Positions 44,431 to 45,270 of a stretch of DNA of 64,000 bases are shown here, piece by piece. Every line of letters begins with the position of its first letter. Positions within the stretch are counted from its first letter, which is position 1. The position numbers and the translations under genes were made by a program. The stretch spans positions 124,001 to 188,000 of the forward strand of contig JAJEGH010000043.1 in NCBI GenBank assembly GCA_022819985.1, written 5' to 3'. Under the pieces are notes generated by a model. The model saw only the letters and a program-made list of their open reading frames with translations. It had not been told where the DNA came from and did no database searches. Source of the stretch: Alphaproteobacteria bacterium. GTDB taxonomy: Bacteria > Pseudomonadota > Alphaproteobacteria > Bin65.

Positions 44431-44458
44431 CTTGAAGCTGCGGGGACAATCCCCAAAT
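44431..44458 (+). promoter_or_regulatory. Heat-shock sigma32 (RpoH)-type promoter
   Basis: CTTGAA (44431-44436) and CCCCAAAT (44451-44458), 14 bp apart, match the RpoH pattern CTTGAA / CCCCATNT. It lies 137 bp before the small heat-shock gene, leaving a leader that holds the ROSE structure. Confidence 0.75.
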
Positions 44459-44504
44459 GACAGTCGTTCCGGATGCCGATTGCGGGTCCGGGACCTGTCA
44501 AAAC

Positions 44505-44595
44505 CGGCTGTCGACCATGGTGGTGGCAGCCTGCGCCCCGATCGCACTTCTCGATCCCATCGGGGCCGTCACATTGCTTCGAAGGAGGATGTGCA
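44505..44595 (+). promoter_or_regulatory. ROSE-type RNA thermometer
   Basis: Three consecutive stem-loops precede the hsp20 start: 44506-44531 (GGCTG/CAGCC), 44535-44566 (GCCCCGAT/ATCGGGGC) and 44570-44593. In the last one CACATTGCTTC pairs with GGAGGATGTG around a GAA loop; the Shine-Dalgarno GGAGG is fully paired, opposite the conserved UUGCU with its G (44576) bulged. This is the diagnostic ROSE feature: at growth temperature the ribosome-binding site is hidden, and heat melts the stem. Confidence 0.85.
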
Positions 44596-45057
44596 ATGAC
44601 CCGTCTCGATTTCACCCCCCTGTTCCGCTCCACCGTCGGTTTCGACCGCGTCTCGCGCCTGCTCGAAGCGGCGATGAACGAGAACGCCGGCACCGCGGCG
44701 GCCTACCCGCCCTACAATATCGAGAAGCTGTCCGACGACGCCTATCGCATCGTCATGGCGGTCGCCGGCTTCGGCGAGGCGGACATCGCCGTCACGGTGA
44801 AGGAGAACACGCTCTACGTCGAAGGCCGCGTGGCCGGCAAGGACGATGGCGCGCGCTACCTGCACCGCGGCATCGCGGGCCGGGCGTTCGAGCGCCATTT
44901 CGATCTGGCCGACCATATCCAGGTCGAGGGCGCGTCGCTCGAAAACGGCCTGCTGGTCATCGACCTGCGCCGGGAAATCCCGGAAGCGCTGAAGCCGCGG
45001 ACCATCGCCATCAGGTCCGCCGACGCCCCGAAGGTGATCGGCAAGAAGGCCGCGTAG
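44596..45057 (+). CDS. Small heat-shock protein, Hsp20/IbpA type
   Basis: A 153-aa alpha-crystallin-domain chaperone. PPYNIEKLSDDAYRIVMAVAGF opens the domain, followed by ENTLYVEGR, GIAGRAFERHFDLADHIQV and ENGLLVIDLRRE, with a C-terminal RTIAI that includes the IxI anchoring motif. It holds unfolding proteins during heat stress. The start at 44596 has AGGAGG upstream, which is sequestered by the ROSE hairpin; the sigma32 promoter adds transcriptional heat control. Confidence 0.97.
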   Translation: MTRLDFTPLFRSTVGFDRVSRLLEAAMNENAGTAAAYPPYNIEKLSDDAYRIVMAVAGFGEADIAVTVKENTLYVEGRVAGKDDGARYLHRGIAGRAFERHFDLADHIQVEGASLENGLLVIDLRREIPEALKPRTIAIRSADAPKVIGKKAA

Positions 45058-45228: not shown

Positions 45229-45270
45229 GTGTCACCCCGGCTCTCCGCTTCGCTCCGGCCGGGGTGACAC
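45229..45270. repeat. Perfect 13-bp hairpin, REP-like
   Basis: GTGTCACCCCGGC is followed after 16 bases by its exact reverse complement. It lies downstream of hsp20 and could end that transcript. The right half resembles the end of the element at 17044-17110. Confidence 0.75.

What the first reader, a model, noticed from the sequence alone, without database searches (positions are those of the whole stretch)
44505..44595. ROSE RNA thermometer in front of hsp20
The last of three stem-loops pairs the whole Shine-Dalgarno with UUGCU and leaves one G bulged, exactly the conserved ROSE geometry. A sigma32-like promoter at 44431-44458 places this structure in the 5' leader, giving dual transcriptional and translational heat control. 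ROSE elements were first described in rhizobia (established); this one extends the observation to this lineage.
Basis: partly seen in the sequence, partly recalled or inferred. Interest (0 to 1): 0.6.

Follow-up and report, generated by a model that had tools for sequence, protein, structure and literature searches.

The report
ROSE RNA thermometer before hsp20
This is a real but ordinary heat-sensing mRNA leader (a ROSE-type RNA thermometer) in front of a small heat-shock chaperone gene in an alphaproteobacterium; the less ordinary part is that its first hairpin carries the same bulged-G motif as the sensing hairpin, conserved across the class.

Summary
Confirmed, with corrections. Window 44570-44593 folds UUGCU against the Shine-Dalgarno of an hsp20 gene (start 44596), with G44576 bulged. 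Rfam misses it (ROSE 19.1 bits, cut-off 45). A covariance model built only from hsp20 leaders outside the window's genus finds it as the one significant hit in the 4.04-Mb genome (E 2.4e-4; next 6.9). Across alphaproteobacterial hsp20 leaders the hairpin covaries strongly, and 102 of 105 carry U(U/C)GCU opposite the SD. A single RpoH-like promoter lies at 44431-44458. So this is a ROSE-like thermometer with probable sigma32 plus translational control, already known for alpha- and gammaproteobacterial small heat-shock genes: a new member of a known kind. Two less expected points: hairpin I holds a conserved bulged-G module, 5'-YGCY-3'/5'-RGG-3', with the geometry of the sensing core (81/105 leaders versus 1.6 expected in shuffles); and the same core occurs directly upstream of rpoH in six of 190 sampled alphaproteobacterial genomes. 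Temperature response itself was not tested.

The parts
44431..44458 (+). RpoH (sigma32)-like promoter, CTTGAA-N14-CCCCAAAT
   Evidence: Only match on either strand of the window; a CTTGA-type -35 followed by a C-rich -10 box recurs in most related leaders; distance from CTTG to the hairpin I bulged G is 43-45 nt in 34 of 49 leaders, 44 nt here; RpoH is encoded in the genome.
44466..44494 (+).
   Evidence: Best hit in the genome of a model built without the window's genus (E 0.0105); 8-bp helix with 98.7% paired cells and 6 pairs with double changes in related leaders; unforced consensus fold of six genus leaders.
44506..44531 (+). Hairpin II, with bulged G44513
   Evidence: Predicted; two pairs with compensatory change in the genus.
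44535..44566 (+). Hairpin III, a stable GC stem with loop variable in length and sequence
   Evidence: Folds; loop is much shorter in two genus members.
44570..44593 (+). Hairpin IV, the ROSE core: UUGCU (44574-44578) against the SD, bulged G44576
   Evidence: Held-out covariance model R1: E 2.4e-4, 27.5 bits, only significant hit in the genome; covariation in related leaders.
44582..44589 (+). Shine-Dalgarno AAGGAGGA
   Evidence: Sequence.
44596..45057 (+). hsp20 small heat-shock protein gene (153 aa)
   Evidence: Pfam PF00011, 60.8 bits; best NCBIfam resemblance IbpA, 151 bits, below its cut-off of 212.

Best explanation
A four-hairpin ROSE-type RNA thermometer. sigma32 probably transcribes hsp20 from 44431-44458, with a start near 44465 (inferred). 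At growth temperature hairpin IV holds the Shine-Dalgarno against UUGCU around the bulged G44576 (structure supported by covariation); the weak U-G / bulged-G core opens on heating so that ribosomes can bind (inferred from characterised ROSE elements). Hairpins I-III remain stable and probably act as a 5'-end and folding scaffold (inferred). The result is heat induction of Hsp20 at both transcription and translation (inferred).
For: Held-out model R1 finds this site alone in 4.04 Mb at E 2.4e-4. Covariation in 58 related hairpins: 91.5% of cells paired against 81.6% in shuffles and at most 62% in slid versions, 58 cells with double changes against 21.8. The pair next to the bulge covaries: all 13 leaders with AGAA have UUGCU, none UCGCU (Fisher p 1e-4), which supports the bulged-G register. 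Hairpin IV is near-invariant in five other genomes of the genus that hold the gene. Of the 74 class-wide R1 hits inspected, at least 48 lie before hsp20. Predicted stability of hairpin IV falls from -8.9 to -5.2 kcal/mol between 25 and 42 C while the other hairpins stay at or below -12. Removing G44576 in silico stabilises the hairpin by about 3-4 kcal/mol; deleting the corresponding G reduced heat induction in a characterised ROSE-like element, and abolished it together with U43C (PMC11342760).
Against: No Rfam ROSE model reaches its cut-off (19.1 of 45 bits; ROSE_3 24 of 43). The single-sequence fold is no more stable than shuffles. Nearest-neighbour prediction gives only a small change in SD exposure, 0.13 to 0.23 from 25 to 42 C. 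The rows of the covariation alignment were located by a pairing-aware script, which favours pairing. No transcript or protein data.
Confidence: 0.92

Rival explanations
1. Only a static SD-sequestering hairpin that lowers translation, without useful temperature sensing; heat control is wholly transcriptional through sigma32.
For: The predicted change in SD exposure with temperature is small; the promoter alone could give heat induction.
Against: The destabilising bulged G and the U(U/C)GCU sequence are kept in 102 of 105 leaders while flanking pairs change; a static lid would not need the bulge.
Confidence: 0.06
2. The conservation reflects something other than a thermometer, such as an upstream reading frame through the conserved CCAUGG of hairpin II or a protein-binding leader.
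For: Hairpin II carries a conserved AUG in the genus; hairpins I and II are conserved beyond the SD hairpin.
Against: The frame opened by that AUG differs between genus members: out of frame with hsp20 in the window, in frame in G001 (reading the leaders); changes are compensatory.
Confidence: 0.02

Closest known systems
ROSE element of rhizobia (Bradyrhizobium japonicum hspA; Rfam RF00435)
   Same: 5' leader of a small heat-shock gene; several hairpins (four in B. japonicum hspA, PMC9450479), the last pairing U(U/C)GCU with the SD around a bulged G; the Rfam consensus also shows a bulged G in its first hairpin.
   Different: Four hairpins where the Rfam model has three, different loop lengths, and a score far below the curated cut-off (19.1 of 45 bits).
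Rfam ROSE_3 (RF02523)
   Same: Its first hairpin aligns to hairpin I, bulged G included.
   Different: 24 of 43 bits; the match does not reach the SD hairpin of this leader.
ROSE-like ibpA thermometers of Pseudomonas (PMC3669281)
   Same: U(U/C)GCU/SD core, stable upstream hairpin, small heat-shock gene.
   Different: Two hairpins (61 nt in P. aeruginosa) there; four hairpins in about 130 nt here.
Providencia stuartii oppF ROSE-like thermometer (PMC11342760)
   Same: Crystal structure of the core: U-G wobble, bulged G, C-G pair, the geometry predicted for hairpin IV and, with C-G or U-G at the first position, for hairpin I.
   Different: Controls an ABC transporter gene.

Membership tests
[quoted passage not shown]
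   44574-44578 against 44584-44589; held-out model E 2.4e-4.
ROSE / ROSE-like RNA thermometer | Bulged G opposite the SD | tested here: met
   G44576; register supported by covariation of the neighbouring pair.
ROSE / ROSE-like RNA thermometer | Two to four hairpins in the 5' leader of a small heat-shock gene | tested here: met
   Four hairpins; Hsp20.
[quoted passage not shown]
   Promoter-like sequence with conserved spacing; transcription start not mapped.
ROSE / ROSE-like RNA thermometer | Temperature-dependent translation | not testable with these tools
   Needs a reporter or structure probing; predictions are weak.
Rfam RF00435 ROSE | Score at or above the gathering cut-off (45 bits) | tested here: not met
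   19.1 bits. Other alphaproteobacterial hsp20 leaders with clear ROSE cores also fall below it, best 30.4 bits.
Rfam RF02523 ROSE_3 | Score at or above the gathering cut-off (43 bits) | tested here: not met
   24 bits, covering hairpin I and part of II.

The most novel reading that the evidence does not exclude
Alphaproteobacterial ROSE leaders are multi-module: the 5'-terminal hairpin I carries a GC-stabilised copy of the sensing core (5'-YGCY-3'/5'-RGG-3' with a bulged G) that is functionally required, for example as a second melting step, a folding guide or a protein or RNase recognition site, rather than a passive scaffold; and in some lineages the same core is also used on rpoH, so that the heat-shock sigma factor and its chaperone target would share one RNA sensor.
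Probability: 0.35. Interest if true: 0.55.

Novelty: new member of a known kind. Interest (0 to 1): 0.28.

Why it matters
By itself it adds one genus to a well-studied regulator. The comparative work suggests that the first hairpin of alphaproteobacterial ROSE leaders is under strong, so far unexplained, constraint; the literature read here notes a conserved first hairpin (in Pseudomonas) without a demonstrated role (PMC3669281). It also shows that the current Rfam cut-offs miss these leaders and points to rpoH as an additional ROSE target in some alphaproteobacteria.

Tried and rejected
Rfam at gathering and permissive thresholds: no curated hit. Single-sequence folding statistic: not informative. 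Second R2 hit in the genome (C21:6122-6144, E 0.024): lies inside a hydantoinase/oxoprolinase-type reading frame (named by eye), taken as chance. Second R1 hit (C22:76371, E 6.9): chance level. Second hsp20 of the genome (C30): no ROSE core seen upstream of the gene and no R1 hit there. Upstream reading frame from the hairpin II AUG: frame not conserved. Alignment A3 of hairpin I with variable loops was misaligned on the 3' arm and replaced by the fixed-length A4. E. coli ibpA region: the coordinates I gave landed in yidE, so no comparison was made. A plasmid search for the locus found, in the rows listed, only the upstream FAA-hydrolase part. Nocker 2001 (PMC96696) is not held.

Full report
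What is there. The gene at 44596-45057 is a small heat-shock protein (Pfam HSP20, 60.8 bits). Its leader contains the SD AAGGAGGA (44582-44589) and, 5' of it, UUGCU (44574-44578). Hairpin IV (44570-44593) pairs C77-G87, U78-A86, U79-G85 and C80-G84 inside and U75-G88, U74-A89, A73-U90, C72-G91, A71-U92, C70-G93 outside, leaving G44576 bulged (last two digits of the window coordinate). Hairpins II (44506-44531) and III (44535-44566) precede it. An unforced consensus fold of the six genus leaders gives the same four hairpins, with bulged Gs in I, II and IV.

Is it more than chance? Rfam finds nothing at its cut-offs and only weak ROSE (19.1 bits) and ROSE_3 (24 bits) matches below them; related leaders score below the cut-off too. 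A single-sequence fold is uninformative. The stronger test was a covariance model (R1) built from 58 hairpins of hsp20 leaders outside the window's genus. In the whole genome it has one significant hit, this one (E 2.4e-4, 27.5 bits; the next is E 6.9). In the same 58 sequences 91.5% of pair cells are paired and 58 cells carry changes on both sides, against 21.8 in shuffles. The register with G bulged is supported independently: leaders with AGAA instead of AGGA always have UUGCU and never UCGCU (13 of 13; p 1e-4). Caveat: the sequences were located by a script that looks for pairing, so control (a) of the pair count is not unbiased, and session E-values are rough; the held-out genome search and the shuffled-leader counts are the safer figures.

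Promoter. CTTGAA-N14-CCCCAAAT at 44431-44458 is the only match to the RpoH-like pattern used on either strand of the window. In 49 related leaders where both features were located, CTTG lies 43-45 nt before the bulged G of hairpin I in 34 (44 nt here), so hairpin I begins at or within a few bases of the predicted transcript start. The genome encodes RpoH (382 bits). The start site itself is not mapped.

How it most likely works. Hairpin IV is the only weak hairpin (-8.9 kcal/mol at 25 C, -5.2 at 42 C; the others at or below -12 at 42 C). By analogy with characterised ROSE elements, heating opens the U-G/bulged-G core and frees the SD. The nearest-neighbour prediction of SD exposure changes little (0.13 to 0.23, 25 to 42 C), so temperature sensing is inferred, not shown.

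Hairpin I. In 105 alphaproteobacterial hsp20 leaders, 81 carry upstream a hairpin with the module 5'-YGCY-3'/5'-RGG-3', a bulged G and at least five outer pairs, against 1.6 (maximum 4) in dinucleotide shuffles; hairpins with a single-base 5' bulge are clearly enriched only when the bulge is G (95 against 22.8), not when it is A, C or U. The outer pairs covary (98.7% paired; rows located by a pairing-aware script), and a held-out model places window hairpin I first in the genome (E 0.0105) and finds hairpin I at the expected place in many leaders it was not built from. The geometry equals that of the sensing core (Y-R pair, bulged G, C-G pair). The Rfam ROSE consensus already shows a bulged G in its first hairpin, so the feature is implicit there; I found no paper in the held library that discusses it, but the original rhizobial paper I looked for is not held. 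Its function is unknown.

Other targets. R1 run over 190 alphaproteobacterial genomes gives hits at E 0.01 or better in 79 of them. I classified 74 hits from fetched regions: at least 48 lie before hsp20, and some of the unclassified ones before divergent or frame-misread hsp20 genes; six lie directly before rpoH (L121, L127, L130, L135, L185, L191), all six above the sigma-32 subfamily cut-off. L121 also has hairpin I (E 0.0017). A 2014 review states that the ROSE family is always associated with small heat-shock genes (PMC4166951); a 2024 paper adds ABC transporter genes (PMC11342760). I found no report of ROSE on alphaproteobacterial rpoH, but literature access here is partial. The window's own rpoH genes gave no R1 hit.

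Verdict. The finding is right in substance and ordinary in kind: a new member of the ROSE-like class with a known type of dual control. The interest lies in the unexplained constraint on hairpin I and in rpoH as an additional target, both of which are comparative observations awaiting experiment.

Noticed in passing
L121, L127, L130, L135, L185, L191: ROSE SD-hairpin directly upstream of rpoH (sigma32) in six of 190 sampled alphaproteobacterial genomes; L121 also has hairpin I with its bulged G.
   Followed up: partly
Window 44506-44531, bulged G44513; related leaders: Hairpin II also carries a single bulged G, invariant in the genus; by eye many other alphaproteobacterial leaders show one in the equivalent hairpin (CCCG[G]CC..GGCGGG, GCCY[G]UCC..GGARGGC).
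   Followed up: partly
L137 (G075:C1:57250-58400): Promoter-like sequence, hairpin I and ROSE hairpin in front of a 61-codon reading frame of unknown identity rather than hsp20.
   Followed up: no
G000:C30:33096-33464 (L003): Second hsp20 of the same genome without a recognisable ROSE core upstream.
   Followed up: partly
Window linker GUC near 44497-44499 with GAC near 44598-44600 (A5 columns 40-42 with 144-146): Consensus fold adds a three-pair long-range helix enclosing hairpins II-IV and touching the start codon; kept in all six genus leaders with one G-U change.
   Followed up: no
Window 45231-45268: Strong inverted repeat GTCACCCCGGC...GCCGGGGTGAC downstream of hsp20; single copy in the window and in the genome.
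   Followed up: partly
Rfam RF00435 and RF02523: Curated cut-offs miss this and the other alphaproteobacterial hsp20 leaders scanned although their ROSE cores are clear.
   Followed up: partly
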